Positions 45,795 through 63,430 of a DNA stretch of 64,000 nt are shown piece by piece. Source of the stretch: Terriglobales bacterium (lineage in GTDB: Bacteria > Acidobacteriota > Terriglobia > Terriglobales > Acidobacteriaceae); assembly GCA_025934735.1 (NCBI GenBank), contig JAICWP010000008.1, forward strand, positions 186,001-250,000, read 5' to 3'. How positions within the stretch are numbered: the first letter of the stretch is position 1; the number at the start of each line of letters is the position of its first letter. Made by a program: the position numbers and the translations under genes. Under the pieces are notes generated by a model, which was not told where the DNA came from, ran no database searches, and saw only the letters and a program-made list of their open reading frames with translations.

Positions 45795-45804
45795 GGAGGT
45801 AAGC

Positions 45805-46596
45805 ATGGAAATTCTGGTTTGCGTGAAACGAGTTCCCGGCACTTCGGAGAACGAAATCGAGTTCAACCCCGAAGGAAACGACATCGAACGCGACGAACTG
45901 CTGTATGGCGTGAATGAGCCGGACAACTATGCGGTTGAAGAAGCGCTGCAGATCACCGCGCGGGTGGGTGGCGAAGTGACGGTGGTGACGGTTGGCGGCG
46001 AGGATGATGAAGAGGTTCTGCGCCGGGAAATGGCCATGGGCGCAAGCCATGGGGTGCTGCTTACCGACCACGCCTTCAGTGGATCGGATGTGAGGGGTAT
46101 TGCGGCGATTCTTCAAGCCTTCGTGAGGAAGGGCAAGTACGACCTGGTGTTGACAGGTGTGCAGGCTGATGACGGTGGCGCCCAGGTGGGCGGCATGCTT
46201 GCGGCAATGCTCGACTATCCATTTGCTTGCTTGGTTAATTCCATCGAGGTGCTGGACGGCCGCAAGCTCAGGATCAGCCGCGAAGTTGAGGGAGGAAATC
46301 GGGAGGTCAGCGAAATCGAGCTGCCGTGCGTGCTTTCGATTCAGACCGGTATCAATGAACCGCGGTATGTCGGTATGCGAGGAATCCGCGCGGTCGGCTC
46401 CGTGCCCATCCCGACTTACGGCGCGGCGGAACTAGCGCTGGACCCAAACACAGTGGGCCATACCGCCGCGAAAGTGAAACGCATGGATTACTTCTTGCCA
46501 GCACTGGGCAAGGGAGCCGAGATGCTCCACGGCAGCCGTGAGGAAATTGTCGCGAGAGTTGCAGATCTGATTGCAGCCAAAGGAGGGCTAAGGTGA
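45805..46596 (+). CDS. etfB: Electron transfer flavoprotein subunit beta
   Basis: 263 residues from the ATG with GAGGAGG seven bases upstream. It has the EtfB start MEILVCVKRVPGT, VNEPDNYAVEEALQ, VVTVGGEDDEEVLRR (the region of the nucleotide site) and the DDGGAQVGGMLAAMLDYP signature. It pairs with EtfA to carry electrons from acyl-CoA dehydrogenase. It overlaps etfA by a TGATG junction. Confidence 0.95.
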   Translation: MEILVCVKRVPGTSENEIEFNPEGNDIERDELLYGVNEPDNYAVEEALQITARVGGEVTVVTVGGEDDEEVLRREMAMGASHGVLLTDHAFSGSDVRGIAAILQAFVRKGKYDLVLTGVQADDGGAQVGGMLAAMLDYPFACLVNSIEVLDGRKLRISREVEGGNREVSEIELPCVLSIQTGINEPRYVGMRGIRAVGSVPIPTYGAAELALDPNTVGHTAAKVKRMDYFLPALGKGAEMLHGSREEIVARVADLIAAKGGLR

Positions 46597-47579
46597 TGGC
46601 TCGCATCTTTGCTTACATCACTCACAGAGCCGGCATCATTGACGATTCGGCGGCTGAACTGCTTACCGCTGCCAACAAGATTGATCCCGCCGCGCCTCCC
46701 ACGGCAATTGTCACCGGATGCGGCGCGGAGTTGGATAGCGTATGCGCCTCCCTGTGCGCTTCCTATGCTGAGGTCTGGAAAATTTCGGATGAATCTCTGG
46801 CTTATCCCAATGCCGAATTGATCAGGAAGGCTCTGGTCGAGGTTCTACCGCCTGGCAGCATTGTGTTGGCTGCCCATGAGCATTTCGGCATTGATTTAGC
46901 ACCGGGTCTTTCCATCAAGCTGGGCGCCGTCTTTGCCTCGGACCTGCTGGAAATCGAGAGAACGGAAGGCTCGCTTCTTAAGGTGGTCCGCCAGGAATTC
47001 GGCGGTCAGGTCAGCGCCCATGTTCAATGTGATATTTCATCGGGCGCGGTTTTGACCATCCGTCCGGGCGCATTCAAGGCGCTGACAACCTCTCCTGCAA
47101 ATGGGCAAGTAGTGGACAAATCTGCTGAGGTAGGAACGCTCACGGCAGGCCGCCGCTATCTGGAGACGGTTGTCGCCGAGACGGGCGATATAGATATCAC
47201 CAAGCACAACATTCTGGTCTCCATCGGCCGCGGCATTCAGGAGAGGGACAACGTTGCTATTGCCCAGGATCTGGCGGATGCGCTCGGGGCGGCGGTTTCT
47301 TGCTCACGTCCTGTAGTTGATGCCAAGTGGCTGGAGAAATCGCGCCAGGTTGGCTCATCCGGCAAAGCGGTGAAACCGAAGGTCTACCTGGCATGCGGCA
47401 TCAGCGGCGCGTTCCAGCACTTGGCAGGTCTCAAGGGCAATCCTTTCATCATCGCCATCAACAAGAATCCCAAGGCTCCCATTTTTCAGGTCGCCGATGT
47501 CGGAATCGTTGACGATCTGCTGGAGTTGCTGCCGGAACTGACCAACAAAATCCACGAAATGCGCAAAGTAGCCGCCTAG
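46596..47579 (+). CDS. etfA: Electron transfer flavoprotein subunit alpha
   Basis: 327 residues from the ATG at 46596, with GGAGGG upstream; the GTG at 46593 is also possible. The C-terminal FAD domain has SIGRGIQERDN, GSSGKAVKPKVYLACGISGA, FQHLAGL and INKNPKAPIFQVADVGIV. It carries FAD and delivers electrons to the membrane Fe-S protein encoded upstream. The usual GQTG is GSSG here, a small change at the FAD site. The acyl-CoA dehydrogenase gene begins 12 bases later. Confidence 0.95.
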   Translation: MARIFAYITHRAGIIDDSAAELLTAANKIDPAAPPTAIVTGCGAELDSVCASLCASYAEVWKISDESLAYPNAELIRKALVEVLPPGSIVLAAHEHFGIDLAPGLSIKLGAVFASDLLEIERTEGSLLKVVRQEFGGQVSAHVQCDISSGAVLTIRPGAFKALTTSPANGQVVDKSAEVGTLTAGRRYLETVVAETGDIDITKHNILVSIGRGIQERDNVAIAQDLADALGAAVSCSRPVVDAKWLEKSRQVGSSGKAVKPKVYLACGISGAFQHLAGLKGNPFIIAINKNPKAPIFQVADVGIVDDLLELLPELTNKIHEMRKVAA

Positions 47580-47591
47580 CGAGGTCTAGCG

Positions 47592-49268
47592 ATGATTGCA
47601 CCCAAAACGCTGAAGCTGAGTTTGAAGGCGCTCCGGGAGTTCGGCAAGAAGCGCCTGCCGGATGAGACTCTCATCGAGTTGGATGAGCGCGATGAGTGCC
47701 CCCTCGACATTGTTCGACATATGTGCAACCCGGACCAGTTGGGCATTCAGCTCCTCTTCATTCCTGAAGAGTATGGCGGTCTTGGCGGCGGGGCATTCGA
47801 CGTGTACTGCATCTGCGAGGAAATGGCGCGCATTGATCTGGGCATTGCCACGGCAGTGCTGGCTACGTTTCTGGGAAGCGATCCCATTACCGTTGGCGCC
47901 ACGCCGGAACAGAAAAAACTGTGGCTCAGCCGGATCGCCAACGAAGGAATTTTGTTTGCTTACGGCGCTACAGAGCCGGACGCCGGCAGCGATCTGGGAG
48001 CTTTGAAGACCACTGCTGACCCGGTGCTTCAGGACGGCCATATTGCCGGTTACAGAATCAATGGAAACAAGCAATGGATCAGCAATGGCGGAGTGGCGGA
48101 TGCTTACACAGTGCTGGCCAATACCCCGGCTGGGCCGAGTTGGTTCGTCGTAGACAAGGAGACGAAGGGGTTCACCCACGACGAACCGGAAGACAAGCAC
48201 GGCATTCGCCTCAGCAACACGGCGGCCTTGGCATTCAACGATGTGTATGTTGATGCGGACCGCCTCCTCGGCGGCGTGGAAGGCCAGGGCCTGAACCAAG
48301 CCCAGGCGGTGTTCGGATATACGCGGCTGATGGTGGCGGCATTTGGACTGGGGGCCGGCTGGGCGGCACTGGATCGCGCCATTCCTTATTCCACCAAGCG
48401 TATCCAGGCCGGAGCGCCACTTTCGGAAAAACAGGGATACACCCACAAGCTGATTGTGCCGCACGTGGTGCGCCTGGAAGCGGCCCGCGCTTATATCGAA
48501 GAAACCGCGGAACGCATTGACGCAGGCGAGGGCAGCCTCAACACCGAAGGCGCGATCGCGAAGTATATGGCTTCCGAAGCCGGTAATTCGGCGGCTGAAG
48601 CCAGCATCCAGGCCCTGGGCGGCTATGGCTACACCCACGAATACATGGTGGAGAAGATCAGTCGCGACGTGCGCATCACCACCATTTACGAAGGCACATC
48701 CGAGATTATGGAGATGACCATCAGCCGCGACCGGTGGCAGCTTCACCTGAAGACTCGCGGACAGCACTTTCACGAACAGGCGCAACAGCTGGAAAAGCTG
48801 CATGTCCAATGTCCGAATGTGGGCGCGGATATTGCTGCGCTCGCGTTGCACGGGCTGGCTGAAGTAATGGAAAAGGCCCGTGTCGGGCGCCTGACTCGGT
48901 ATCAGCACGTCCTCTTGCGACTGGGCGAGTTGATCGCGTACGCGGAGTGTGCGGGTAGTCTTGCCCGGCGCGTTGCGCGACTGGCGGAAGGCAAGCTCAA
49001 CGAAAAGGCCAACCGGCGCTTTGACGCAAGCGCGCTCGCAGCAGTAAGCCGGGTGTTCGCGCGGGAGGCCGCACTGAAGGTTGCGGAAGAAGGTTTGCGC
49101 CTGATAGTTGGAGCCGGTGGCGTGAGCGAGACGGATATTGCTGCCTTCGAAGCAAGCATGAGGGTGCCGGCCATTCACCGGATGCAAGCTGGATTGCTTG
49201 CAGACATGGACTACACAGCAGACGCCCTATATAACCGCGCCGCAAAAAGTGCAGCTCGCGCGGCCTGA
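47592..49268 (+). CDS. Acyl-CoA dehydrogenase
   Basis: 558 residues, with a C-terminal helical extension beyond the usual 380, as in the larger acyl-CoA dehydrogenase groups. Visible are the FAD-binding [24 protein letters not shown], the C-terminal [32 protein letters not shown] and an LLR-type end region. It introduces or reduces a trans-2 double bond in an acyl-CoA, with EtfAB as electron partner. It forms one run with the Fe-S protein, etfB and etfA, and ends 67 bases before the megasynthase gene. Confidence 0.93.
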
Positions 49269-49335: not shown

Positions 49336-52300
49336 ATGGAGAACACCGCATACCGAGCCATCGCAATTGTGGGGGCGGGCGCCGTTCTGCCCGATGCTCC
49401 CAACGTACCCGCGTTTTGGGAAAACGTGAAAAGCGGCCGCTACAGCATCAGCGAGGTTCAGAAGGATCGGTGGGACCCGGCGCTTTACTACGATTCCAAC
49501 CCCAGCGCGCCGGACAAGACCTATTCCAAGATCGGTGGCTGGGTGCGCGAGTACCCATGGGAACCAATTAAGTGGCATCTGGCGGTTCCACCGCGTGTAG
49601 TGGATGCCATGGATGTAGCTCAGAAATGGGCTATCGCCTCTACCCGCGAAGCGTTGGAAGACTATGGCTATCCCAAGCGGCCGTTGGATCTGGAGCGCAC
49701 CGCGGTGATCCTTGGCAATGCCATGGCTGGGGAAAGGCACTATTTCACAGCATTGCGCGTGTACTTTCCGGAATATGCCCGTGAACTGGAGGAGAGCGGC
49801 AGCTTTGCCGCGCTTCCGGAAGCGGTGCAGCACGAGATCACGCGCGAATTGCACGACCGGATGGGGAAGCACCTGCCCGAAATTACGGAAGACAGTATGC
49901 CCGGCGAGCTGGCCAACTGCATTGCTGGCCGCATCGCGAATATCTACAACTTCCATGGCCCCAACTTTGTGGTAGATGCGGCATGCGCGTCGGCAATGGC
50001 AGCCATAAATTCGTCAGTCGAGGGCCTGGTGCAAAACGACTTTGACACGGCCGTTACCGGCGGCATTGATCGCAACATGGGTGCTTCTACTTTCGTCAAA
50101 TTCTGCAAGATTGGAGCGCTCTCGGCCACGGGCACGCGTCCCTACGCGGAGGGGGCCGACGGCTTTGTCATGGGCGAGGGAGCTGCCATCTTCGTGCTCA
50201 AGCGCTTGGCGGATGCCGAACGCGATGGGGACGAAATCTATGCCGTGCTGCGTGGCATGGGAGGGTCGAGCGACGGTAAAGGAAAAGGCATCACTGCGCC
50301 CAACCCAATCGGCCAGAAGCTGGCGGTTGAGCGCGCCTGGCAAAACGCCGGCCTTTCACCCGCAACTGCCACTTACGTGGAGGGACACGGAACCTCTACC
50401 CGCGTCGGTGACGTGGTCGAAGTACAAAGCCTGTTGGACGTGCTGAGCGGCTTCCAACTTCCTTCCGCGTCCGTGGCGTTGGGCTCCGTTAAGTCCAATA
50501 TCGGGCATCTTAAAGGCGCTGCCGGGGCCGCCGGCTTCCTGAAAACGGTTCTGGCGCTCCAAGAAAAGGTGTTGCCGCCCAGCTTGAATTGCGAACGACG
50601 TAATCCGGGCATTGACTTTGCGCATTCTCCGGTCCGTGTCAACACCGAACTAACCCAATGGACGGTTCCCACCGATGCTGTGCGGCGCGCCGGTCTGAGC
50701 GCGTTCGGTTTCGGTGGCACCAACTTTCACGCTGTGCTCGAAGAGTACGTGCCCCATAGGCTAGCTGGAAACGGCAAGGGGTCGGTGGCTGTGGGCGAGA
50801 TTTCGGGGCCAGTTGTGAGCGAGCCGGCCCTCCATTCCGACAATGGCCCGCGTAGTTCTGCGTCTTTCTATAAACCGCCATTGCGGGGTGCGCTGGTGAT
50901 CGGCGCGGCTTCGGAAGCCCTGCTCGGCGAGCGTCTGCGGTCAATGAAGAAGGAAGCGGAAGCAGGCCGGGCGCCTGCGTTGGCAGCGCCGGCGGAAGCG
51001 GACCTGCGCGCGCCTGAGCGCCTGGCAATTGACTATGCCGATGCCGCTGACCTGGGAGTTAAAGCAGGCAGCGCGCTCAAGGCGCTCGCGGCGAACCAGG
51101 CGCCGGTGTGGCGGGCCCTGCGCGCCCAAGGCATCTTCCGTGGACACGGGCCGGCCCCCAAAGTCGCGTTTCTTTACACCGGCCAAGGCTCGCAGTATGT
51201 GAACATGCTGCAGCCGCTGCGCGCCATGGAACCAATCGTGGCTGAGACTTTCGCCGAGGCGGATCGAGTTATGACGCCGCTGCTGGGCAAGCCGCTCAGC
51301 AGCTTTATCTTTATTGATTCCGCCGATCCCGCCGCTGTGGCTAAGGCCGAAAATGATCTGCGACAGACCGCCATCACCCAGCCCGCGGTTCTGGCGACGG
51401 ACATGGCGCTGACCCGATTGCTCGCCGCTTACGGCGTTGAGCCTGATTTCACCATGGGACATAGCTTGGGTGAATACGGGGCCCTGATTGCCTCCGGCGC
51501 TATCCCCTTCGAAGATGCTCTGGAAGCGGTAAGCGCGCGTGGCCAGGAAATGACTCGTGTGTCACTGAGCGATAACGGGCGCATGGCGGCGGTATTCGCG
51601 CCGTTAATGGAGATTGAGCGGATTCTCAAGACGATCAATGGGTACGTGGTAGTCGCCAATATCAACAGCGACAACCAGGCTGTCGTAGGCGGCGCCAGCG
51701 AGGCGGTCGAGCAAGCTATGGAGGCCTTCCAAAAAGCCGGCTACGAAGTAGCCGCCTTGCCGGTCAGCCACGCTTTCCACACGTCTATCGTCGCCCCGGC
51801 CAGCGAACCCCTGCGACGAGTGCTGGAGCGCTTACGCCTGCAAGCGCCGCGGATTCCAATCATCGCCAACTTGGACGGAGCGTTTTATCCCACTGGCCCC
51901 GATGTTGTGCGCCAGATGTTGGACATACTCGCGCAGCAGGTGGCCTCTCCCGTGCAATTCATCAAGGGGCTGCGTACGCTCTACGACGCCGGGGCCCGCG
52001 TCTTTGTGGAGGTGGGGCCGAAAAAGGCGCTGCAGGGATTTGCGGAAGATGTGCTCGGTCGGCGTGGCGATACAGTTTCCGTTTTCACCAATCATCCTAA
52101 ATTTGGCGACATTCCATCTTTCAACCAGGCACTGTGTGCCCTTTACGCGGCGGGACTGGGCCGCGGCATTGCAGAACGGCCGGAGCACCGAGTGCCAGCC
52201 CTCTCGGTTCCCATGTCGCCAGAAAGCCCCGCACCACCACAGTCGGTAAGTTCCGTGGCAGCTACGCCCACGGACGCGACAACACCGGTCAACGGTGATC

Positions 52301-55300
52301 ATTACGCTGAACTCGGCCGCATGTTTGCCGATGTGCTGGAGCGTGGCTGGCAAATTTACCGGGGCGGTCAGCCCGCGCCGCCCGCCGTTCCGGTGGCCAT
52401 CACCGGGGCAGCACTGGGCCTGCCGGGAACTGAGCACATTTTTGATGATGACAACATCGGACGGATTCTGCGCGGCGAGCAATTCATTGACGTCGTTCCT
52501 GGGCGACTGCGCCGTGCCATGCTGGACAAACACATCACCCGCCTGGTGAAAAGCGACAATGGCGGCCCCACATTTGAGACCATTAATAATGTTGCCGATG
52601 TCATCAAATTGGCCGGCCGCGGCGGCGTCTTTGATCTAAAGAATGAATTTGGCGTCACTGCTGATCGCCTGGCTGCTCTTGACCGCGTCACCCAACTGGC
52701 TATCGCCGCCGGCATTGATGCGCTGCGGGACGCCGGCATTCCCCTGGTAATGCGCTACAAGACCACCAGCAAAGGCACGCAGTTGCCCGATCGCTGGGCC
52801 TTGCCCGACGCCTTGCGCGACGAGACGGGCGTAATCTTCGCCTCTGCTTTTCCCGGCCTCGACTCCTTTGCCGACGAGATGTCTCGGTACTACGGAGACC
52901 GGTCGCGGCGCGATCAATTGGCCGTGCTGGAAAACTTGCGTGCCCGCAGGGCAGAGACGAATGGCCATTCGCTCCTGGAACAGGAACTGGAGCGCCGCGC
53001 TGAAGAACTGCGCGACACCATCGAAAAAGAGCCTTATGTGTTTGATCGCCGTTTTCTGTTCCGCACTCTCTGCATGGGGCACTCGCAGTTGGCCGAGTTC
53101 ATCGGCGCCCGCGGTCCGAATACCGCCATCAATGCCGCGTGCGCCAGCACTACTCAGGCGGTAGGTCTGGCGGAGACTTGGATTCAGGCGGGGAAATGCC
53201 GTCGCGTCATCGTGGTCTCAGCCGACGATGTGACCTCCGACCACATGATGGAGTGGTTTGGCGCCGGATTCCTGGCCAGCGGAGCGGCAGCGACGGATGA
53301 GGTGGTCGAAGAGGCGGCGACGCCTTTCGACCGGCGCCGGCACGGCATGGTTGTGGGCATGGGTGCTGCTGCCCTGGTGGTGGAGAGCGCTGACTCCGCG
53401 CGCGAACGGGGGCTCCAGCCCATCTGCGAAGTGCTTAGCGCGGTGACCGCGAACAGCGCCTTCCATGGCACTCGACTGGATGTGCAACACATCGGCCAGG
53501 TGATGGAAGACCTGGTGTCACAGGCGGAAGCTCGCCACGGCATTCGGCGCCAGGAGATCGCGCCAGAGACGGTGTTTGTTTCTCACGAAACCTACACGCC
53601 GGCGCGCGGAGGCAGTGCCTCAGCGGAAATTTTCGCTCTGCGTCACGTTTTCGGCGAGTCTGCCGACCGCATTGTCATCGCCAATACAAAAGGCTTCACC
53701 GGCCATGCCATGGCTACGGGGATCGAAGATGTAGTGGCAGTAAAAGCTTTGGAAACCGGTTGCGTGCCGCCGGTGGCCAACTTCAAGGAAGTTGATCCGG
53801 AACTCGGTTCTTTGAACTTGTCCAAGGGAGGACTGTATCCGGTGAAATATGCGCTGCGCCTGGGAGCGGGATTTGGATCGCAAATCAGCATGACCCTGGT
53901 GCGGTGGGTGCGCACGAACGGTGGAGTTCGTCGGGCGCCCAATGCTCTGGGCTACAGTTACCGCATCAGTGATCCTGCAGCATGGGCCGGTTGGCTGGGC
54001 CGCATCGCCGGGCATTCAGCACCGGATTTGGAAGTTGCGCACCGCACGCTCCGGGTGCGGGATCAAAGGTCTGCTGCGCAAGCGGGCCAGACCGCTCAAC
54101 AGCTTCGCGCGGTAACGGTACCAAACGATGAGAAGCATGAGCCGCCAATTCCACTCAAGAAGTTGGAATCTAAACCGGCCCTTGTACCGCTGGTCGCGAC
54201 TAGTGCGGCAAAAGCAGAAGCCGCGAGAATTGAACCCGTTCCACTTCCAAAATCTGCTGGCGCGGACGACCCGGTAAAACAGCGGGTGCTCGCCTTAGTT
54301 GCCGAGAAAACCGGCTACCCGATTGACATGCTCGATATTGACCTCGACCTGGAAGCAGACTTGGGGGTTGATACCGTCAAACAGGCGGAAGTGTTCGCCG
54401 CGATCAGAGAAGCGTACGCCCTTCCTCGGGAGGATAAATTCAAGCTGCGTGATTTTCCCACCTTAGCCCACGTGATTGGTTTTGTACACGAGCGTCGGCC
54501 AGACAGTCGCGCGGAGAAGCCAGCCGTGGCGGCGGCAGAACCGAAGCAGGAATTGACAGTGCTAGAGACGGAAGGCACACCCACCGCGCCAAAGGGCATG
54601 GATGATGATGTGAAGGGACGACTTCTGGCGCTGGTGGTCGAAAAGACCGGCTATCCCAAAGATATGCTGGATCTGGACCTCGATTTGGAAGCGGACCTGG
54701 GGATTGACACGGTCAAACAAGCCGAGATGTTCGCGGCTATCCGGGAAATCTACAAGATCCCGCGCGATGAAAATCGGAAGCTGCGCGATTATCCCACCCT
54801 GGCACACGTGATCCGCTTCGTATACGACAAGCGCCCCGACCTTGCGCGAGGGGCAACGTCGGCAGCGGCCACTGTGGCGTCGCCTTCCCTCGTGCCGACT
54901 GGACAGCAAGCGACCACGGAGGATGCTATCCAGGCGAAAGTGCTCGAGATAGTGGCTGAGAAGACCGGCTATCCCAAGGACATGCTGGACTTGGACCTGG
55001 ACTTGGAAGCCGACTTAGGCATTGATACCGTCAAGCAAGCTGAAATGTTCGCGGCGGTGCGGGCGGCCTACAGCATTCCACGCGACGAGAATCTCAAACT
55101 GCGTGATTTCCCAACCCTGGCCAGCGTCATCAAGTTCGCCCGTGATCGGCAGGGCCGGCGGCAGCAAGCAGAAACTCCAGCGGCTCCGGCAAAAACAAAA
55201 CAGGAAAAGGGAATCACGCAAGAACATTCGACAGGGACAGGGGTGCCCACTGTGCGCCCGGCGCTCGCCAGCCTGGAAGCGACAAATCGCATTCCACGCC

Positions 55301-57813
55301 GCGTACCAGTGCCGGTGCTGCGCCCGCCGCTCGGCCTCTGCAAGCCTACAGGTGTCTGCCTGGATGGTATTCGCCGAGTAGTAGTCATGAGCGACTGGGG
55401 CGGAGTCGGTGCAGCGCTGGCGCAGCGCTTGCAGGGTCTTGGTGTAGAAGTCCTCCTCGTTGAAGACGCACCTCCAGCAGAAGCATTGGCCAAACGGCTA
55501 GAGGCCTGGATGGCTGCCGGTCCTATACACGGGGTGTACTGGTTGCCTGCGCTCGATGATGAAGGAGATGTTCGCAAGTTGGATATTGCCGCGTGGCATG
55601 AAGGCATCCGTATACGTGTAAAGCTGCTTTACACGACCATGCGAACGCTGTACAGGCAGATTGCGGCGCCTGGCAGATTCTTGATGTCGGCTACACGGCT
55701 AGGAGGCCAGCATGGTTATGATGAGGCAGGAGCCGTCGCCCCGCTGGGTGGCGCGGTGGTTGGCTTCACCAAAACCTACAAACGAGAGCAGCCCGAAGTT
55801 TTGGCCAAAGCCGTGGACTTCGAGCGGAGACGCAGCGCTTCAGAAATTGCCGAAATCCTCATTACCGAAACGCTGAGTGATCCTGGAGCCGTAGAGGTCG
55901 GCTACAAGCAGGATTTGCGCTGGACAGTTGGCCTGCAGGAGCAACCAGCCAACGACGGTCAACCGGGCCTGGCGCTGGACAAGGACACTGTCTTCCTGAT
56001 TACTGGCGCGGCGGGAAGCATCGTATCGGCCATAACGGCTGATTTAGCCGCTGCTTCGGGCGGCACCTTTTACCTCCTCGATTTGGCGCCCGAGCCAGAT
56101 GCAAACAATCCTGACCTCAAGCGCTATGCCAGCGACAAAGACGGCCTGAAGCGCGATCTCTTTAGCCGCATTCAGGCCCGCGGAGAGCGTGCCACTCCTG
56201 CCATGGTGGAGAAAGAGTTGGCGGCTCTGGAGCGGGCACAGGCTGCGCTGACCGCCATCAACAGCGTGCGAGCTTCCGGAGGGACGGCACATTATTTTGC
56301 CGTTGATCTTACTGATGCCGGCGCTGTGGCCCGCATCATTGATCAGGTGCGAGAGCAAAGTGGGCACATTGATGTGCTGCTGCACGCCGCCGGTTTGGAG
56401 CGCAGCCACTTCCTGCCGGATAAGGATGCCCGTGAATTCGATCTCATCTTTGATGTCAAGAGTGACGGCTGGTTCAACCTGCTGCATGCCATCGGAGAAA
56501 TGCCGCTCGGAGCGACCGTGGTGTTCAGTTCTATTGCTGGCCGCTTTGGCAACGCGGGGCAGACGGATTACAGTTCCGCCAACGACCTTTTGTGCAAGAT
56601 CACGTCGAGCTTCCGCACCACACGCCCGGCGACCCGCGCCATCGCCATTGATTGGACGGCCTGGGGCGGCATCGGTATGGCCACCCGCGGCTCTATTCCA
56701 AAAATGATGGAAGCAGCTGGGATAGACATGCTGCCGGCCGAGGCGGGCGTTCCCCTGATCCGACGCGAATTGACCTCAGGACGTACACGGGGCGAGGTCG
56801 TTATCGGCCAGCGGCTTGGAGTCCTGCTGAATGAATGGGACGCCACCGGAGGTCTGGACCTGGACAAAGCACATGCCGTCCTGGAAAAAGGTTCGCCGGC
56901 ACGGGGACCCATGATCGGCAGGCTCGCATCCATCACTTTGCAGCGGGGCCTCTCCATTGAAACCACGCTCGATCCAGCCATTCAACCCTTCTTGCGCGAT
57001 CATCAGATTGAAGGCACGCCGCTCCTGCCCGGGGTTATGGGCATTGAAGCCTTTGCCGAAGCCGCACTCTGCCTGCTTCCCAGTTGGCATATCGAGTCCA
57101 TTGAGAACGTGGACTTCCTCGCGCCAGTTAAGTTTTATCGAAACGAACCGCGCACGCTGACGATTGAGGCGCTCGTGCACCCCGGGGGGGACGTGCTGGT
57201 TGCGGATTGCCGGCTCCTGGGACATCGCAGGCTTGTCAATCAGCCGGACTTACAAGTCACTACCCACTTTACCGGCCGCGTGCGCCTGGCCAGAGAGTTG
57301 TCCGCGGCAGCCATTGCCCCAAAGCTGAGCTCACCCGCCGGAGCGCTGATCACAGCCGCCGACGTGTATCGCGTTTATTTCCACGGACCGGCCTACCAGG
57401 TGGTGGAACAGGCGTGGTGGAACGGCGCTCGTATGGTGGCGGAGCTAGCCAGGAACCTGCCTGCGAATCATCATCCACCCGAGTTGGCCAGTGCCGTTTC
57501 TCCGCGGCTGATTGAGCTTTGCTTCCAGACCGCCGGCCTTTGGGGACTGGCGGTGGAGGGCCAGCTGGGGCTGCCACAGCACGTGGATTATGTTCGGGTG
57601 CTGCGCGCGCCCGAACTGGCTGTGGGCGGCTTGTATGCCGTGGTTACACCTCAGGCCCAGCCAGCGCAATTCAATGTTGAGGTAATAGACACAGACGGAA
57701 ATCTCTATGTGCAACTCAGAGGCTATCGCACCGTCGCTCTTCCGAAAGACATCGATGCCAAGGCTCTGAAAGCACTGCAAGCCCCGGTGTCACTGCAGAC
57801 CGCCGCAGCCTGA
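49336..57813 (+). CDS. Type I PUFA-synthase-like megasynthase, KS-AT-KS-ACPx3-KR-DH
   Basis: 2825 residues from the ATG with AGGAG upstream; an upstream in-frame extension to 49198 has no support. Order: KS1 (Cys217, His351, His391); AT from about residue 609 (Ser710 in GHSLGEYG; HAFH 812-815, the malonyl-type motif); KS2 about 1020-1545 (Cys1269, His1417, His1457); three ACPs near 1680, 1792 and 1898; KR (TGAAGSI 2223-2229, Ser2399, Tyr2412); and a DH-like double hotdog (His2556 in HQIEGTPLLP, then YFHGPAYQ). The expected DH aspartate is replaced by Glu2727. The architecture resembles PfaA with a second KS inserted. Carboxylase and phosphopantetheinyl transferase genes follow directly. The product is unknown. 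Confidence 0.9.
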   Translation: MENTAYRAIAIVGAGAVLPDAPNVPAFWENVKSGRYSISEVQKDRWDPALYYDSNPSAPDKTYSKIGGWVREYPWEPIKWHLAVPPRVVDAMDVAQKWAIASTREALEDYGYPKRPLDLERTAVILGNAMAGERHYFTALRVYFPEYARELEESGSFAALPEAVQHEITRELHDRMGKHLPEITEDSMPGELANCIAGRIANIYNFHGPNFVVDAACASAMAAINSSVEGLVQNDFDTAVTGGIDRNMGASTFVKFCKIGALSATGTRPYAEGADGFVMGEGAAIFVLKRLADAERDGDEIYAVLRGMGGSSDGKGKGITAPNPIGQKLAVERAWQNAGLSPATATYVEGHGTSTRVGDVVEVQSLLDVLSGFQLPSASVALGSVKSNIGHLKGAAGAAGFLKTVLALQEKVLPPSLNCERRNPGIDFAHSPVRVNTELTQWTVPTDAVRRAGLSAFGFGGTNFHAVLEEYVPHRLAGNGKGSVAVGEISGPVVSEPALHSDNGPRSSASFYKPPLRGALVIGAASEALLGERLRSMKKEAEAGRAPALAAPAEADLRAPERLAIDYADAADLGVKAGSALKALAANQAPVWRALRAQGIFRGHGPAPKVAFLYTGQGSQYVNMLQPLRAMEPIVAETFAEADRVMTPLLGKPLSSFIFIDSADPAAVAKAENDLRQTAITQPAVLATDMALTRLLAAYGVEPDFTMGHSLGEYGALIASGAIPFEDALEAVSARGQEMTRVSLSDNGRMAAVFAPLMEIERILKTINGYVVVANINSDNQAVVGGASEAVEQAMEAFQKAGYEVAALPVSHAFHTSIVAPASEPLRRVLERLRLQAPRIPIIANLDGAFYPTGPDVVRQMLDILAQQVASPVQFIKGLRTLYDAGARVFVEVGPKKALQGFAEDVLGRRGDTVSVFTNHPKFGDIPSFNQALCALYAAGLGRGIAERPEHRVPALSVPMSPESPAPPQSVSSVAATPTDATTPVNGDHYAELGRMFADVLERGWQIYRGGQPAPPAVPVAITGAALGLPGTEHIFDDDNIGRILRGEQFIDVVPGRLRRAMLDKHITRLVKSDNGGPTFETINNVADVIKLAGRGGVFDLKNEFGVTADRLAALDRVTQLAIAAGIDALRDAGIPLVMRYKTTSKGTQLPDRWALPDALRDETGVIFASAFPGLDSFADEMSRYYGDRSRRDQLAVLENLRARRAETNGHSLLEQELERRAEELRDTIEKEPYVFDRRFLFRTLCMGHSQLAEFIGARGPNTAINAACASTTQAVGLAETWIQAGKCRRVIVVSADDVTSDHMMEWFGAGFLASGAAATDEVVEEAATPFDRRRHGMVVGMGAAALVVESADSARERGLQPICEVLSAVTANSAFHGTRLDVQHIGQVMEDLVSQAEARHGIRRQEIAPETVFVSHETYTPARGGSASAEIFALRHVFGESADRIVIANTKGFTGHAMATGIEDVVAVKALETGCVPPVANFKEVDPELGSLNLSKGGLYPVKYALRLGAGFGSQISMTLVRWVRTNGGVRRAPNALGYSYRISDPAAWAGWLGRIAGHSAPDLEVAHRTLRVRDQRSAAQAGQTAQQLRAVTVPNDEKHEPPIPLKKLESKPALVPLVATSAAKAEAARIEPVPLPKSAGADDPVKQRVLALVAEKTGYPIDMLDIDLDLEADLGVDTVKQAEVFAAIREAYALPREDKFKLRDFPTLAHVIGFVHERRPDSRAEKPAVAAAEPKQELTVLETEGTPTAPKGMDDDVKGRLLALVVEKTGYPKDMLDLDLDLEADLGIDTVKQAEMFAAIREIYKIPRDENRKLRDYPTLAHVIRFVYDKRPDLARGATSAAATVASPSLVPTGQQATTEDAIQAKVLEIVAEKTGYPKDMLDLDLDLEADLGIDTVKQAEMFAAVRAAYSIPRDENLKLRDFPTLASVIKFARDRQGRRQQAETPAAPAKTKQEKGITQEHSTGTGVPTVRPALASLEATNRIPRRVPVPVLRPPLGLCKPTGVCLDGIRRVVVMSDWGGVGAALAQRLQGLGVEVLLVEDAPPAEALAKRLEAWMAAGPIHGVYWLPALDDEGDVRKLDIAAWHEGIRIRVKLLYTTMRTLYRQIAAPGRFLMSATRLGGQHGYDEAGAVAPLGGAVVGFTKTYKREQPEVLAKAVDFERRRSASEIAEILITETLSDPGAVEVGYKQDLRWTVGLQEQPANDGQPGLALDKDTVFLITGAAGSIVSAITADLAAASGGTFYLLDLAPEPDANNPDLKRYASDKDGLKRDLFSRIQARGERATPAMVEKELAALERAQAALTAINSVRASGGTAHYFAVDLTDAGAVARIIDQVREQSGHIDVLLHAAGLERSHFLPDKDAREFDLIFDVKSDGWFNLLHAIGEMPLGATVVFSSIAGRFGNAGQTDYSSANDLLCKITSSFRTTRPATRAIAIDWTAWGGIGMATRGSIPKMMEAAGIDMLPAEAGVPLIRRELTSGRTRGEVVIGQRLGVLLNEWDATGGLDLDKAHAVLEKGSPARGPMIGRLASITLQRGLSIETTLDPAIQPFLRDHQIEGTPLLPGVMGIEAFAEAALCLLPSWHIESIENVDFLAPVKFYRNEPRTLTIEALVHPGGDVLVADCRLLGHRRLVNQPDLQVTTHFTGRVRLARELSAAAIAPKLSSPAGALITAADVYRVYFHGPAYQVVEQAWWNGARMVAELARNLPANHHPPELASAVSPRLIELCFQTAGLWGLAVEGQLGLPQHVDYVRVLRAPELAVGGLYAVVTPQAQPAQFNVEVIDTDGNLYVQLRGYRTVALPKDIDAKALKALQAPVSLQTAAA
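54262..55140 (+). other. Triple ACP block with Thr in place of the carrier Ser
   Basis: Three carrier domains, centred near residues 1680, 1792 and 1898, read DLGVDTVKQ, DLGIDTVKQ and DLGIDTVKQ. In PfaA-type carriers the matching motif is DLGIDSIKR, where Ser binds 4'-phosphopantetheine. The Thr codons are ACC, ACG and ACC, and the flanks differ synonymously, so the change is not a copied sequencing error. ACP2 and ACP3 are nearly identical in protein, a recent duplication; ACP1 is more distant. Linkers are Ala/Pro/Thr-rich. Confidence 0.85.
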
Positions 57814-57856
57814 TTGCTTGGGTTTGGCCGGGCAGAAAATCGCTCTGGGGGGCTTT

Positions 57857-60800
57857 ATGCAGACGGAGTTTCAGCGCATCGCCATCGTCAATCGCGGTGA
57901 AGCCGCCATGCGCTTCATCCATGCCGCTCGTGAGTTCAACCAGGAGTACGGGACTTCATTTCGCACCATCGCCCTCTTCACCGAACCTGAGCGACGCGCC
58001 ATGTTCGTCAGGGAGGCCGACGACGCCATCTCTCTAGGCCCGCCGCAGGCGTTGGATTCACGCACGGGAAAACTTACCAGCAGCTATGTCCATTACGACC
58101 GCCTACAGCACGCTTTGCAGACCGCGCATGCCGAAGCAGTTTGGGCAGGATGGGGGTTCGTGGCCGAGCACGCCGAATTTGCCGATCTGTGCCGCAGTAT
58201 GGGAATCGTGTTCATTGGCCCGGATGGAGATGCGATGCGGCGGCTGGGCGACAAGATATGTGCCAAGCGCCTGGCTGAACAATCGCAGGTGCCAGTTGTA
58301 CCGTGGAGCGGTGGCCCAGTCGAAACTCTCAGCGAGGCTGAGCGCTCGGGTGAACTCCTGGGTTATCCCCTGCTGATTAAGGCCACGGCGGGAGGCGGGG
58401 GTCATGGCATTCGTCGGGTAAATTCACCCGCCCAGCTTGCCGCAGCTTTCACCAGCGCTCGCTCGGATGCCTGCAAGGCCTTTGGCAACCCCACAGTCTT
58501 TCTGGAACAGGTGGTGCATGGGGCACGGCATGTAGAAGTCCAGATCATCGCCGATCACTACGGGACCACATGGGCAGTTGGGGTGCGGGACTGCACCATC
58601 CAGCGCCGCCATCAGAAAATACTGGAAGAATCGCCTTCGCCAGCTCTCTCGCCCGAAGGAGACCGGCAGCTCCGGGAGTCGGCTGTACGCTTGAGCCAGG
58701 CGGCCGCCTATCACAATGCCGGCACGGTGGAATTTCTGTATCAGCCGGAGAGCGCCCGCTTCCTCTTCATGGAGATGAATACGCGGCTGCAGGTCGAACA
58801 TCCTGTCACCGAATGCACGACACGGCTCGACCTGGTCAAATTGCAGATTCACGTAGCCCGCGGCGGGCGCCTGGAAGGAGCACCACCGCTTTGTTCTGGC
58901 CATGCTATCGAGGTGAGGCTCAACGCGGAGGACCCTGACAACAGCTTCGCTCCGGCGCCTGGCATAGTGGAGCGGTTCAGGATCCCGACTGGGCCAGGGG
59001 TGCGCATCGACACGGGCCTGGCGGAAGGCGACACCATCTCCGCGGAATTCGACTCGATGATCGCCAAGATCATCGCGCATGGTCAGACTCGCAACGAGGC
59101 GCTTGCACGACTTAAGCGGGTACTCCAGGAAGCGGTTGTTGTGGTCAGAGGCGGAACCACCAATAAGGCGTTTCTTCTCCGGTTGCTGTCACGGGACGAG
59201 GTCCAGAATGGGCGACTGGATACCGCCTGGCTCGACCGCCTGGCGGGGAACGGGGAACACCTGTCCAAATCTTATGCTGATGTAGCGCTGATACAGGCGG
59301 CCATAGAAGCCTACGACACTGAACAGGATGTGGAACTGCAGCAGTTTTATGCTTCAGCTGTCCGCGGCCGGCCCCAAGTTCGCCGCGCAATAGGCCGAAA
59401 AGTTGCATTGCGGTACCGAGGCCATTCCTACTCGCTTACCGTCTATCGCCTCGGCCCGCAACATTACCGTGTAGCCGTGGATGGATGCCGTATCGATGCT
59501 CATAGCGAACGACTTGCTGCCTTTGAATACTGGCTCACGGTTTTGGGGAGACGATTCACCGTCACCTCTGTCGCCCAGGAATTGAATTACCGGATCGAGA
59601 TAAATGGTGTGTCGCATAGGATCGACCGCGATGAAGGCGGCGTAGTGCATGCCCCGGCCCCCGCAGTAGTCGCTTCCGTTGCGGTGAAACCGGGCGATAT
59701 GGTGTCAGCCGGCGATCAAGTGGCGGTGTTGGAGGCAATGAAAATGGAGATAGAGATAGTCGCTCCATTTTCCGGGAAGATCCGCAGCGTAACCGCCATA
59801 CCCAATGTGCAGGTGGATACCGGCGCACCCCTGCTGCAGATCGAGCCCGCGACTATTCAACAAGCAATGCCGCCCGCGGAACGAGTAGCGTTTCAGACAT
59901 CGCTCCTCGCGCCGGGGAGCGGATCAGATGCTAGTCTCGAGAACCTGCAGAATGTGCGGCAATTCATTCTCGGCTTCGATGTGGATCCAGCGCAGATTGC
60001 TCGCCTGCTCCCGCAGCGTAATCGCGCTTGCGCACTGCCCGCCGATAGAGAAGAAATCACAAGATGCGAAAACGAAATCCTCCAAATATTTGTGGACATT
60101 TGCACGCTGTTCCAACGTGAACCCAAGTTGGACGGTTCCAATATTGCGGAAGTGCCTAGCGCCGAAATCCAGCTTTTCACGTATTTGCGTTCAGTGGATA
60201 CGCGTGGTGAGGGACTCCCCTCCAGCTTTGTCGCCGCGCTCCAGCGCACGCTGGCTTACTACGGAGTGCAGACACTGGATCGTTCTCCGAAGCTGGAACA
60301 GAGCCTGCTCTGGATCTACAGGTCGCATGAGCGAGCGGAGCAGCAAGCAGCGCTGATTTTGGAAGTGCTGGACCGCCGCCTCTCGCAGGTTGAGGTCTGT
60401 ACTTCCAAGGCAGACGAGTGTTTTCGCGCGCTACTGGATCAGATGATCTCTGTTACCCGCGGGAACTTGCCCGCAGTCAGCGACTTGGCCCAGGAGTTGC
60501 GCTATCGCTGTTTCGATCAACCGGTCTTTGAGAGCGCCCGCAAGCAGGTCTATGACGAAATGGAAGGTCACTTGGCGTATCTCAGCACCAGGCCAGAAGC
60601 TGACGAACGCGTCTTTCTTTCTCGCGCCCTGATCGAATGTCCACAGCCATTGATGGCCCGGTTTTCCCGCCGGTTCGCGACCGCGGATCCAGTGGCTCGG
60701 CAACTGATGCTGGAGGTGCTCACCTGGAGGTATTACCGTGTCCCCGGCCTCTCTCAATTTCGCACTCTTACCTCTAACGGGCAATGCGTTGTGTCCGCTG

Positions 60801-63430
60801 AATACGACGAGGAAGGGCGAGATGTTCATCTTTTCACCACTTGTGGGGAGTATGGGCGCTTGACCGAGGCAGCCCAGGCCATGTTCCCGATGATCCAGGA
60901 AGTCCCGACAGACCACGATGTGGCGATTGATTTCTATTTGTGGCGTTCTTCTCCTGCCGCTGATGTCGAACGTACTGAGCAGGAAGTCCGTTCGCTGTTG
61001 AATCAGGCCGGCTTTCCACGGCCTATCCAGCGCATTGTAGTCATAGCCGGGAATCCAGAGGAGGGTCAGGGAGACAATGGGGTGCAGCAGTTTACGTACC
61101 GGCACCGTGATGACACCTACAGTGAAAAAGAGCTCTACCGCGGAATCCACCCCATGATCGCGAAGCGGCTGCATCTTTGGCGACTGGAGAATTTTAAAAT
61201 CCAGCGCCTGCCCTCCACAGAGGATGTGTATCTGATTCATGGGACAGCGCGCGACAATCCCAAAGACGAGCGCCTCTTCGCAGTTGCGGAGGTGCGCGAT
61301 GTCACGCCTGTGCGGGACAAGGATGGACACGTCGTGCAGTTGCCGCATCTGGAGCGCATGTTCGCGGAGGCCCTGGCCAGCATTCGGCTGTTTCAGTCGC
61401 GCCGTCCTCTCCGGGACCGGTTGTACTGGAACCGCGTACTGCTCTATGTTTGGCCGCCACTTCACCTCCACATGGATGAGTTTCACCGCATCCTGAACAG
61501 GCTTGCACCCTCCATGGAAGGCTTGGGCCTGGAACAAGTGGTGGTATGCGCCCGCATACCCCACCCGCAGAGCGGGGAATTGCGCGACATGGTTGTACGC
61601 ATTTCCCTGCCAGGCGGCGCTGGCTTACAGGTGACGATCCGGCCTGCCACCGAAGCACAACCGCTCAAGCCGCTCAGCGAGTATGAGCAGAAGGTTGTTC
61701 GCATGCGCCGGCGGGGACTCATCTATCCGTACGAAATCATCAAAATGCTTACCCCTGACCGGGACAACACCCGAACCGCTTTCCCTCCCGGCAGTTTCGT
61801 CGAGCACGATCTCAGCCCCGAAGGCCGGCTCGTGCCGGTCAACCGGCCTTACGGCCAAAACAAGGCGAACATCATCGCCGGCGTTATGTGCAACTTCACC
61901 GCGAAGTATCCCGAGGGTATGACCCGGGTCATGCTTTTGGGAGATCCCAGCAAGGATCTGGGCGCCATTGCTGAACCTGAGTGCCGCTACATTATTGCCG
62001 CCCTGAATCTGGCCGAAAAAAAGGGGGTGCCGTTGGAATGGTTTCCCATCTCTGCCGGCGCGAAGATTTCCATGGACAGCGGAGTGGAAAACATGGATTG
62101 GATCGCTCGCGTGCTGCGCCGCCTGGTCGAGTTCACCCAGGCCGGAGGGGAAATTAACCTGGTGGTGGATGGCATCAACGTGGGGGCGCAGCCGTACTGG
62201 AACGCTGAAGCCACCATGCTCATGCATACGCGTGGAATTCTGATCATGACTCCCAATGCGGCCATGGTGCTTACCGGCAAGCGCGCTCTGGACTATTCGG
62301 GCAGTGTCTCGGCTGATGATAACCAGGGCATTGGGGGATACAGCCGCATCATGGGCGTCAATGGGCAGGCCCAGTATTGGGCGCAAGACATCCACGAGGC
62401 GTGCCATATCCTGTTGCGCCACTATGAGCACACCTACGTGATGCCGGGCGAGCGATTTCCCCGGCCCGCGCCTACTACGGATCCTGTCAATCGTGACGTG
62501 GGCGCCTATCCCCACAGCAATGACGGCGAAAATGCCTTCGCGTACGTGGGCGAGATCTTCTCCGATGGGAGCAATCGAGGACGCAAAAAAGCTTTCAATA
62601 TTCGCAGGGTCATGATGGCTGCCATTGACCAGGACCATGCTCCGCTGGAACGCTGGGCCGGCATGCAAGGCGCCGAGACGGCTGTGGTCTGGGATGCCCA
62701 TCTTGGCGGCTACCCGGTTTGCCTGATCGGCATTGAGTCCAAGCCCGTACCGCGCTTGGGATTCGTGCCCGCAGACGGGCCAGATCAATGGACCGCGGGC
62801 ACCCTTTTCCCTCTCTCCTCCAAGAAGGTGGCGCGCGCTATTAACGCAACCAGCAATAACCGCCCAGTTGTGCTCTTGGCCAATCTCTCCGGATTCGATG
62901 GGTCGCCTGAATCGATGCGCAAGCTGCAACTCGAGTATGGCGCGGAAATCGGCAGGGCGGTGGTGAATTTCAAGGGACCCATGGTTTTTTGTGTTATTTC
63001 CCGCTATCACGGCGGTGCTTACGTGGTTTTCTCCCGGGCGCTGAACGAACACCTGGAGGTGGCCGCGCTAGAGGGAACCTACGCCTCGGTGATCGGCGGT
63101 GCTCCGGCCGCCGCTGTTGTTTTTGCGAGCGAAGTGGAAGCCAGAACGCGTAAGGATTCGCGTCTTGAAGCTCTAAACCAGGACATGGCTCAGGCCGAGG
63201 GCCTGGAGAAAGGCCGCTTGCGCGCTCAGTGGAATGAATTATTCAAAATCATACATTCCGAAAAACTGGGGGAGATGGCCGGTGAGTTTGACCGGATCCA
63301 CAGCGTACAGCGCGCCCTGGCAGTGGGCGCTCTGCATCGCATAATTCCGCCGTCACATCTTCGCCCTTATCTCATCCACGCGCTGGAGCGCAGCATGGAA
63401 AAGGAAAGGAAACTGGCGCAAGTGGCTTAG
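57857..63430 (+). CDS. Single-chain acyl-CoA carboxylase, eukaryote-like BC-BCCP-central-CT
   Basis: 1857 residues from the ATG with GGGGGG upstream. Biotin carboxylase is at about 1-460 (Lys175 in KATAGGGGHG, TIQRRHQKILEESPSP, EMNTRLQVEHP). The biotinyl domain is at about 595-665 with Lys629 in LEAMKMEIE. A central region follows at about 680-1270; within it RLHLWRLENFKI and the block around LYVWPPLHLHMDEF resemble the ACC central domain of eukaryotes. Carboxyltransferase is at about 1275-1857 (SAGAKISMDSGVENMDW, NAAMVLTGKRALDYSG, DNQGIGGYSRIMG). It makes malonyl-CoA or a related carboxyl-CoA from acyl-CoA, bicarbonate and ATP. It starts 43 bases after the megasynthase stop. Confidence 0.9.
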   Translation: MQTEFQRIAIVNRGEAAMRFIHAAREFNQEYGTSFRTIALFTEPERRAMFVREADDAISLGPPQALDSRTGKLTSSYVHYDRLQHALQTAHAEAVWAGWGFVAEHAEFADLCRSMGIVFIGPDGDAMRRLGDKICAKRLAEQSQVPVVPWSGGPVETLSEAERSGELLGYPLLIKATAGGGGHGIRRVNSPAQLAAAFTSARSDACKAFGNPTVFLEQVVHGARHVEVQIIADHYGTTWAVGVRDCTIQRRHQKILEESPSPALSPEGDRQLRESAVRLSQAAAYHNAGTVEFLYQPESARFLFMEMNTRLQVEHPVTECTTRLDLVKLQIHVARGGRLEGAPPLCSGHAIEVRLNAEDPDNSFAPAPGIVERFRIPTGPGVRIDTGLAEGDTISAEFDSMIAKIIAHGQTRNEALARLKRVLQEAVVVVRGGTTNKAFLLRLLSRDEVQNGRLDTAWLDRLAGNGEHLSKSYADVALIQAAIEAYDTEQDVELQQFYASAVRGRPQVRRAIGRKVALRYRGHSYSLTVYRLGPQHYRVAVDGCRIDAHSERLAAFEYWLTVLGRRFTVTSVAQELNYRIEINGVSHRIDRDEGGVVHAPAPAVVASVAVKPGDMVSAGDQVAVLEAMKMEIEIVAPFSGKIRSVTAIPNVQVDTGAPLLQIEPATIQQAMPPAERVAFQTSLLAPGSGSDASLENLQNVRQFILGFDVDPAQIARLLPQRNRACALPADREEITRCENEILQIFVDICTLFQREPKLDGSNIAEVPSAEIQLFTYLRSVDTRGEGLPSSFVAALQRTLAYYGVQTLDRSPKLEQSLLWIYRSHERAEQQAALILEVLDRRLSQVEVCTSKADECFRALLDQMISVTRGNLPAVSDLAQELRYRCFDQPVFESARKQVYDEMEGHLAYLSTRPEADERVFLSRALIECPQPLMARFSRRFATADPVARQLMLEVLTWRYYRVPGLSQFRTLTSNGQCVVSAEYDEEGRDVHLFTTCGEYGRLTEAAQAMFPMIQEVPTDHDVAIDFYLWRSSPAADVERTEQEVRSLLNQAGFPRPIQRIVVIAGNPEEGQGDNGVQQFTYRHRDDTYSEKELYRGIHPMIAKRLHLWRLENFKIQRLPSTEDVYLIHGTARDNPKDERLFAVAEVRDVTPVRDKDGHVVQLPHLERMFAEALASIRLFQSRRPLRDRLYWNRVLLYVWPPLHLHMDEFHRILNRLAPSMEGLGLEQVVVCARIPHPQSGELRDMVVRISLPGGAGLQVTIRPATEAQPLKPLSEYEQKVVRMRRRGLIYPYEIIKMLTPDRDNTRTAFPPGSFVEHDLSPEGRLVPVNRPYGQNKANIIAGVMCNFTAKYPEGMTRVMLLGDPSKDLGAIAEPECRYIIAALNLAEKKGVPLEWFPISAGAKISMDSGVENMDWIARVLRRLVEFTQAGGEINLVVDGINVGAQPYWNAEATMLMHTRGILIMTPNAAMVLTGKRALDYSGSVSADDNQGIGGYSRIMGVNGQAQYWAQDIHEACHILLRHYEHTYVMPGERFPRPAPTTDPVNRDVGAYPHSNDGENAFAYVGEIFSDGSNRGRKKAFNIRRVMMAAIDQDHAPLERWAGMQGAETAVVWDAHLGGYPVCLIGIESKPVPRLGFVPADGPDQWTAGTLFPLSSKKVARAINATSNNRPVVLLANLSGFDGSPESMRKLQLEYGAEIGRAVVNFKGPMVFCVISRYHGGAYVVFSRALNEHLEVAALEGTYASVIGGAPAAAVVFASEVEARTRKDSRLEALNQDMAQAEGLEKGRLRAQWNELFKIIHSEKLGEMAGEFDRIHSVQRALAVGALHRIIPPSHLRPYLIHALERSMEKERKLAQVA

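What the first reader, a model, noticed from the sequence alone, without database searches (positions are those of the whole stretch)
54262..55140. All three carrier domains have Thr where phosphopantetheine Ser is expected
Seen: DTVKQ at residues 1679-1683, 1791-1795 and 1897-1901, with independent codons (ACC, ACG, ACC), so the change is maintained. Known: ACPs use Ser in DSL/DSI; Sfp-type enzymes act on Ser, and Thr is rarely modified. Inference: these carriers are either loaded on Thr by the dedicated transferase encoded downstream, or are inactive and the chain grows by another route. I recall a similar motif in other large synthases but cannot confirm how widespread it is.
Basis: partly seen in the sequence, partly recalled or inferred. 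Interest (0 to 1): 0.85.

Follow-up and report, generated by a model that had tools for sequence, protein, structure and literature searches.

The report
Lipid synthase with threonine carrier domains
A bacterial lipid-making enzyme found in several phyla has threonine where carrier proteins normally need serine to hold their flexible arm, and it usually travels with its own arm-attaching enzyme, which suggests an unreported threonine-based way of switching carriers on.

Summary
All three carrier domains of the 2825-residue synthase (window 49336-57813) read DTVKQ, with ACC/ACG/ACC at the site. It is not a local oddity. With a profile masked at the site, 229 of 229 distinct scorable carriers of the family and 53 of 53 of a Myxococcota set have Thr; 44 of 44 distinct carriers of the related Pfa-like synthases sampled have Ser. 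All four Thr codons occur. In a quick KS tree of 60 rows Thr needs one change, SH-aLRT 99. No Ser or Cys is conserved elsewhere in the domain, and Thr starts helix II of an ACP-fold model. Catalytic motifs of the other domains are mostly intact. A phosphopantetheinyl transferase lies downstream on the same contig in 26 of 29 genomes and is fused to the synthase in both giant relatives scanned. Best reading: Thr carries phosphopantetheine, installed by that transferase; no modification was measured. The cluster fits the predicted 'Type R' secondary-lipid synthase of Shulse and Allen 2011. Ten searches of open-access papers found no report of natural Thr carriers.

The parts
49336..57813 (+). 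Type I synthase, 2825 aa: KS1-AT-KS2-ACP-ACP-ACP-KR-DH
   Evidence: Pfam: ketoacyl-synt (2 stretches), Acyl_transf_1, PP-binding, KR, PKS_DH_N/PS-DH; best NCBIfam hit TIGR02813 PfaA at 950.8 bits, below its cut-off of 1010.1
54253..54504 (+). Carrier domain 1; Thr codon ACC at 54373-54375
54589..54840 (+). Carrier domain 2; Thr codon ACG at 54709-54711
54907..55158 (+). Carrier domain 3; Thr codon ACC at 55027-55029; the model is an ACP fold with Thr at the first residue of helix II
52306..53940 (+). Second ketosynthase-like domain, called CLF in the literature for this type, but Cys and both His are invariant in the 12-row alignment
   Evidence: (C279, H427, H467 invariant in A1)
57818..63430 (+). 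Single-chain acetyl-CoA carboxylase-like protein (biotin carboxylase, biotin carrier, ACC central region, carboxyltransferase): likely malonyl-CoA supply
   Evidence: Pfam
63465..64000 (+). Sfp-type 4'-phosphopantetheinyl transferase, cut by the window end; complete ORF is L010:1465-2229 (254 aa)
   Evidence: Pfam ACPS 67.6 bits; GCDLE and WSAKESALK motifs
47592..49268 (+). Acyl-CoA dehydrogenase-like protein (558 aa), part of the conserved cassette
   Evidence: Pfam; directly upstream of the synthase in 83 of 84 family loci with enough upstream sequence
43701..47579 (+). Fe-S/CCG-domain protein and the two electron-transfer flavoprotein subunits, found in part of the family only
   Evidence: Pfam; matches in 36 to 38 of 105 loci searched, many loci being too short to show them and some matches weak

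Best explanation
This is a Pfa-like iterative lipid synthase whose tandem acyl carrier domains use threonine in place of serine as the attachment residue. The Sfp-type transferase encoded just downstream, or fused to the same chain in some giant myxobacterial relatives, transfers 4'-phosphopantetheine from CoA to the Thr hydroxyl. The malonyl-type AT then loads malonyl units, supplied by the neighbouring carboxylase, onto the arm for chain growth by KS/KR/DH. Shown: Thr is invariant in the sample, it sits at the canonical site, there is no substitute Ser, the other catalytic motifs are mostly intact, and the transferase is linked or fused. Inferred: Thr is the modified residue, the linked transferase modifies it, and the product is a fatty-acyl chain. 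Further inference: Thr makes the synthase independent of the housekeeping AcpS.
For: (1) Thr at the masked site in 229 of 229 distinct scorable carriers of the core family and 53 of 53 of a Myxococcota set; 0 Ser. (2) All four Thr codons are used (ACC 133, ACG 101, ACT 16, ACA 13 of 263 scored), so the residue and not the DNA is kept. (3) In the Myxococcota set the neighbour Gln is Thr, Leu, Met or Ser in 8 of 53 and the Lys is Arg in 2 of 53, but Thr never changes. (4) No other conserved Ser or Cys: the highest Ser column is 43 of 263, in the N-terminal linker. (5) Thr41 of the model starts helix II; the fold matches ACPs, including those in AcpS complexes. (6) A PF01648 match lies 3.7-11.3 kb downstream of the second KS domain in 25 of 29 genomes and 21 kb in one more; two giant Thr synthases scanned carry an ACPS domain in the same chain. 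(7) The window's genome has two PF01648 matches, an AcpS-like one and this one. (8) KS1, AT and KR motifs are found in 53 to 56 of 56 family ORFs. (9) A linked transferase (L100) models as an Sfp-type fold, best match Sfp-PCP 4mrt, Z 20.7.
Against: No modification was measured. In E. coli, ACP(S36T) is described as unable to be modified by 4'-PP and non-functional (PMC3340395, passages read), so Thr loading would need transferase features not identified here. The candidate marker GCD...KES is absent from some transferases of Thr synthases (L075, L078, L274, L275, L277, and in part L193), and KES is, from memory, also in Sfp, so it does not explain Thr use. In 3 of 29 genomes no transferase was placed beside the synthase (L131, L137, L144). 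Invariance alone does not say what is attached. Only the nearest 80 of at least 576 relatives in genome contigs were read.
Confidence: 0.77

Rival explanations
1. Thr is loaded with phosphopantetheine, but not by a specialised enzyme: Thr is a tolerated nucleophile in this carrier context and ordinary Sfp- or AcpS-type transferases serve it. Thr was fixed once in the ancestor and kept by dependence on surrounding residues.
For: The Thr-associated transferases share no motif of their own in all cases. A single change on the KS tree is compatible with a frozen accident.
Against: A transferase is on the synthase's contig in 26 of 29 genomes and fused in the two giant proteins scanned. E. coli S36T is described as not modified. 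Ser is one base change away (ACN to TCN), yet appears in none of the 229 and 53 distinct carriers, and neighbours change while Thr does not.
Confidence: 0.13
2. The tandem domains are not carriers any more: they are kept as structural or docking modules, and the chain grows on another Ser-type ACP in trans or on CoA.
For: Ser-type ACPs exist elsewhere in the genome. Ser-to-Thr abolishes function of E. coli ACP.
Against: A bypassed site would drift, yet Thr is invariant while flanking residues vary. The DLEADLG.DT.KQA stretch is near-invariant in the core family. A transferase is linked or fused. A genome-wide PF00550 search found no Ser carrier within the window.
Confidence: 0.06
3. Thr carries something else: phosphate, or an acyl ester directly on the hydroxyl, instead of phosphopantetheine.
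For: Thr is a common phospho-acceptor in general (recalled). Nothing computed here identifies the adduct.
Against: ACP fold and canonical site, and a linked or fused phosphopantetheinyl transferase with intact motifs. The one kinase-like ORF I saw beside the cassette looks, by eye, like a sensor histidine kinase on the other strand (L010:2938-5175), not a Thr kinase; neighbours were not scanned systematically.
Confidence: 0.04

Closest known systems
Type R secondary-lipid synthase cluster (Shulse and Allen 2011, PMC3098273; passages and sections 7-8 read)
   Same: [quoted passage not shown] in Koribacter an acetyl-CoA carboxylase gene lies between, as here.
   Different: The main text does not contain the words threonine or serine. 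Here a DH domain follows the KR, the 'CLF' keeps Cys-His-His, and an acyl-CoA dehydrogenase gene belongs to the cassette.
PfaA of omega-3 PUFA synthases (NCBIfam TIGR02813)
   Same: KS-AT-tandem ACP-KR parts, and the best NCBIfam hit (950.8 bits).
   Different: Below the curated cut-off of 1010.1. The Pfa-like synthases sampled have Ser (DSIKR or DSIKQ) in 50 of 50 carriers and lie on the other side of the KS tree.
Sfp-type phosphopantetheinyl transferases (Sfp 4mrt, human 2cg5, PptAb 6rcx)
   Same: Fold and catalytic acidic/Lys motifs.
   Different: 14-19% identity to these three in the structural alignments. Most core-family members have Cys before the first acidic residue (GCD), where the other transferases with a readable motif mostly have Val or Ile; the carriers here have Thr.
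Escherichia coli ACP S36T mutant (PMC3340395, passages read)
   Same: Same Ser-to-Thr change at the carrier site.
   Different: Artificial, described as not modified by 4'-PP and not functional; here Thr is natural and invariant in the sample.

Membership tests
Type R secondary-lipid synthase | KS-MAT-CLF-ACP(3-6)-KR in one protein | tested here: met
   Domain order, three carriers; the CLF label is doubtful since Cys/His/His are kept, and a DH domain is added
Type R secondary-lipid synthase | Downstream PPTase gene | tested here: met
Type R secondary-lipid synthase | KS placement with the named Type R genomes | tested here: inconclusive
omega-3 PfaA (TIGR02813) | Score above curated cut-off | tested here: not met
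   950.8 against 1010.1 bits
omega-3 PfaA (TIGR02813) | Ser in the carrier motif, as in the Pfa-like synthases sampled here | tested here: not met
   Thr in 3 of 3 against Ser in 50 of 50
Acyl carrier protein domain (Pfam PF00550) | Domain match over the curated cut-off | tested here: met
   28.1, 27.5 and 25.4 bits against 20.8
Acyl carrier protein domain (Pfam PF00550) | 4'-phosphopantetheine covalently attached at the start of helix II | not testable with these tools
   Needs mass spectrometry
Sfp-type PPTase | ACPS superfamily domain, two-lobed length and catalytic acidic/Lys residues | tested here: met
   P0003; relatives:

The most novel reading that the evidence does not exclude
A natural, multi-phylum family of carrier proteins is activated as O-(4'-phosphopantetheinyl)-threonine by its own Thr-accepting transferase, a carrier code orthogonal to the usual Ser code and invisible to AcpS. 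It arose once in a Pfa-like synthase and has been kept without reversal in everything sampled.
Probability: 0.66. Interest if true: 0.85.

Novelty: new variant of a known kind. Interest (0 to 1): 0.74.

Why it matters
The serine of carrier proteins is treated as a fixed point of fatty acid, polyketide and peptide biosynthesis, and Ser-to-Thr is used as a loss-of-function control in E. coli. A family that uses only Thr in several phyla would be a natural exception to that rule. It would offer an orthogonal carrier-transferase pair for engineering and warn against calling such carriers inactive from the motif alone. The question is testable with one small domain, one transferase and a mass spectrometer.

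Tried and rejected
Considered and rejected: (a) Sequencing error or local decay: Thr is in every scorable carrier of the relatives read. (b) A displaced Ser: no Ser or Cys column is conserved; other near-invariant hydroxyls exist (Thr of FPT, Tyr and Thr of TGY), but not at the carrier site. (c) A natural loss case: L131 looked like a synthase without carriers, but its frame runs into an N stretch of about 100 bases just after the second KS, so it says nothing. (d) A transferase signature for Thr: above 150 bits, 50 of 52 printed rows with a readable motif have GCD (some are one gene seen through two loci); L193 and L075 have GVD, and the lower-scoring Thr-associated L078, L274, L275, L277 have neither GCD nor KES. 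(e) A Thr carrier of known structure: four PDB sequence hits at E up to 0.01; the three whose alignments I saw have Ser at the site. (f) Papers that looked promising but were not on this point (passages only): PMC13343975 uses S36T for IscS binding; PMC11744666 concerns a Thr beside, not at, the site as I read it; PMC3908369 (swf, a different architecture, passages and outline).

Rows dropped before counts: 12 of 106 family loci gave no carrier. Of these I looked at seven (L131, L132, L133, L138, L140, L163, L164, output cut): the parts I could see end shortly after the second KS or hold an N stretch. L046, L079, L127, L141 and L154 were not inspected one by one. One hit read R beside an unread base (L091) and two were truncated; these, and rows with 12 or more gaps, were left out of the 229. 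Some contigs occur twice under two ids (53,675 and 33,996 bases), hence the use of distinct sequences. In one search, 4 of 61 hits were truncated. In one search, 22 of 349 genomes matched; I fetched 20 (not G542, G381): 18 gave Ser carriers, G377 Thr, and L203 none.

Limits: the KS tree is a quick, midpoint-rooted tree of 60 chosen rows whose Ser side is 18 loci of one phylum sample plus L080; HglE and other types were not included, so 'one change' holds for this sample. Rows L077 and L078 have long branches. The KS2 Cys pattern is loose and could match KS1; the KS2 triad rests. Many loci are metagenome-assembled genomes, whose organism names may be wrong. For helical bundles a Z near 13 is only moderately telling, by the tool's own note. 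Literature: ten searches of open-access papers, of which 7, 10, 59, 60 and 76 listed nothing; one subscription paper I asked for was not held.

Full report
WHAT IS THERE. The ORF at 49336-57813 (ATG start) encodes 2825 residues. Pfam gives two ketosynthase stretches, a malonyl/acyl transferase, a carrier match, a ketoreductase and a dehydratase. DTVKQ is at residues 1679, 1791 and 1897 with codons ACC, ACG, ACC. Upstream lie an Fe-S/CCG protein, two electron-transfer flavoprotein subunits and an acyl-CoA dehydrogenase. Downstream lie a single-chain acetyl-CoA carboxylase-like protein and an Sfp-type phosphopantetheinyl transferase cut by the window end.

OWN GENOME. The genome (4.94 Mb, 99.8% complete) has seven PP-binding matches: these three and four others. 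The four others read DSL, DSL, DSL and DSI, all Ser, and none lies in the window. It has two PF01648 matches: an AcpS-like protein elsewhere and the cluster transferase.

FAMILY-WIDE TEST. To avoid choosing relatives by their carriers, I searched with the second ketosynthase domain. In the window's own phylum, which I take to be Acidobacteriota from the named relatives, 22 of 297 genomes had a match below 1e-100 (my count from the table). In the phylum of G367, a Myxococcales assembly, 56 of 235 matched at 1e-60. In the phylum of G370, a Nonomuraea, 2 of 296 did, one being the centre genome. In genome contigs at least 576 stretches encode a relative; the best 80 became loci. Those with readable carriers include records titled Acidobacteria, Actinomycetota genera (Paractinoplanes, Planobispora, Nonomuraea, Mycobacterium, Kineosporia, Trebonia), Myxococcota, Bacteroidota, Calditrichaeota, KSB1, Krumholzibacteriia and Woeseiaceae. 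A carrier profile with the Thr/Ser column masked to X found carriers in 94 of 106 family loci: 266 Thr, no Ser, one R beside an unread base, two truncated. Distinct sequences after dropping those and gappy rows: 229 of 229 Thr. The codons are ACC 133, ACG 101, ACT 16, ACA 13 of 263 scored.

MYXOCOCCOTA SET. Thirty loci, 12 matching the query along most of its length and 18 from a giant subfamily matching only its second half, gave 57 Thr of 57 scorable carriers and 4 truncated hits; 53 of 53 distinct. The residue three after Thr is Thr, Leu, Met or Ser in place of Gln in 8 of 53, and the Lys before it is Arg in 2 of 53, but Thr never changes. In both giant proteins scanned (L274, L275) an ACPS domain is fused near the C-terminus; L277 has transferase motifs in its long ORF, and L276 has a transferase-like ORF directly after the synthase.

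CONTROL. TIGR02813 matched in 22 of 349 genomes of the phylum of G377, a Woeseiaceae assembly. I fetched 20 of the 22. Eighteen loci gave 50 carriers, all Ser; the only Thr locus is the family member G377 itself (5 of 5), and one contig held none. Carriers near other matches, mostly FAS-type, also read Ser. On a quick KS1 tree of 60 rows Thr (41) and Ser (19) are split by one branch, SH-aLRT 99.

SITE AND FOLD. In core-family carriers the stretch DLEADLG.DT.KQA is almost invariant and no Ser or Cys column is conserved. The AlphaFold2 model of carrier 3 (mean pLDDT 83.6) has Thr41 as the first residue of helix II. It aligns with solved ACPs at Z up to 13.3 (1.4 A over 78 residues, 6lvu), including ACPs in AcpS complexes (4dxe, 1f80); the tool warns that such Z is common for helical bundles, so the sequence match to PF00550 carries the assignment.

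TRANSFERASE. Of 29 genomes reached through family loci, 26 have a PF01648 match on the synthase's own contig: 25 lie 3.7-11.3 kb after the second KS and one 21 kb after it (contig identity from length or from the same hit inside the locus). L131, L137 and L144 are the exceptions; the genomes of L131 and L144 hold a GCD-type transferase elsewhere (L188, L189), and L137 stays open. Cluster transferases keep the acidic and Lys residues of the Sfp fold. The L100 model (pLDDT 86.0) matches Sfp-PCP 4mrt at Z 20.7 and human transferase-ACP 2cg5 at Z 19.0. Most core-family transferases have GCD where the others mostly have GVD or GID, but exceptions among Thr-associated ones mean this does not explain Thr use.

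INTACT SYNTHASE. In 56 long family ORFs (some from the same genome) the KS1 Cys and two His, AT GHS and HAFH, and KR Tyr motifs are found in 53 to 56, and a DH motif in 47. The second KS keeps Cys and both His in all 12 aligned rows. The acyl-CoA dehydrogenase is directly upstream in 83 of 84 loci with enough sequence, 59-89% identical; L078 is the exception.

INTERPRETATION. Shown: an invariant hydroxyl residue at the canonical site, no replacement, a machine with mostly intact motifs, and a linked or fused transferase. Inferred: Thr is phosphopantetheinylated by that transferase. E. coli ACP S36T is described as not modified by 4'-PP and non-functional (PMC3340395, passages), which makes the natural case surprising and suggests that Thr may shield the synthase from AcpS (inference). 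Dead carriers are unlikely because the site does not drift.

KNOWN OR NEW. The cluster fits the predicted Type R secondary-lipid synthase of Shulse and Allen 2011, product uncharacterised there; in Koribacter they note the carboxylase gene between synthase and transferase. That text does not contain threonine or serine. Searches for DTVKQ, for phrases on phosphopantetheinyl threonine and for related terms listed no paper that I could recognise as reporting natural Thr carriers; most listed papers were seen as titles and abstract starts only. Subscription papers and preprints were not searchable, so novelty is provisional.

Noticed in passing
window 52306-53940 and alignment A1: The domain called chain length factor in Type R clusters keeps the ketosynthase Cys (AAC) and both His (SHE, TGH) in all 12 rows of A1, so it may be a second active ketosynthase.
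   Followed up: partly
window 47592-49268: An acyl-CoA dehydrogenase-like protein is directly upstream of the synthase in 83 of 84 loci. No enoyl reductase domain of the PfaD kind was reported in the synthase by Pfam, so this flavoprotein, with the neighbouring ETF in some genomes, might reduce or oxidise carrier-bound chains.
   Followed up: partly
window 57818-63430: A single-chain acetyl-CoA carboxylase-like protein with biotin carboxylase, ACC central region and carboxyltransferase, an arrangement I recall mainly from eukaryotes, sits in this bacterial lipid cluster; matches in 50 of 105 loci searched, many of them too short to show it.
   Followed up: partly
cluster transferases, for example L010:1465-2229: Most cluster transferases have Cys before the first catalytic Asp (GCDLE), unlike the other transferases read, mostly GVD or GID.
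   Followed up: partly
L274:4187-13927, L275:5590-17655: Giant synthases of the Myxococcota set combine KS, AT, Thr carriers, KR, DH and a phosphopantetheinyl transferase in one chain; L275 also has an N-terminal NMO match, which I recall as the fold of PfaD-type enoyl reductases.
   Followed up: partly
L147, L148, L149, L155: Records titled Mycobacterium sp. carry the same acyl-CoA dehydrogenase-synthase-carboxylase-transferase cassette with Thr carriers, the transferase gene on the opposite strand.
   Followed up: no
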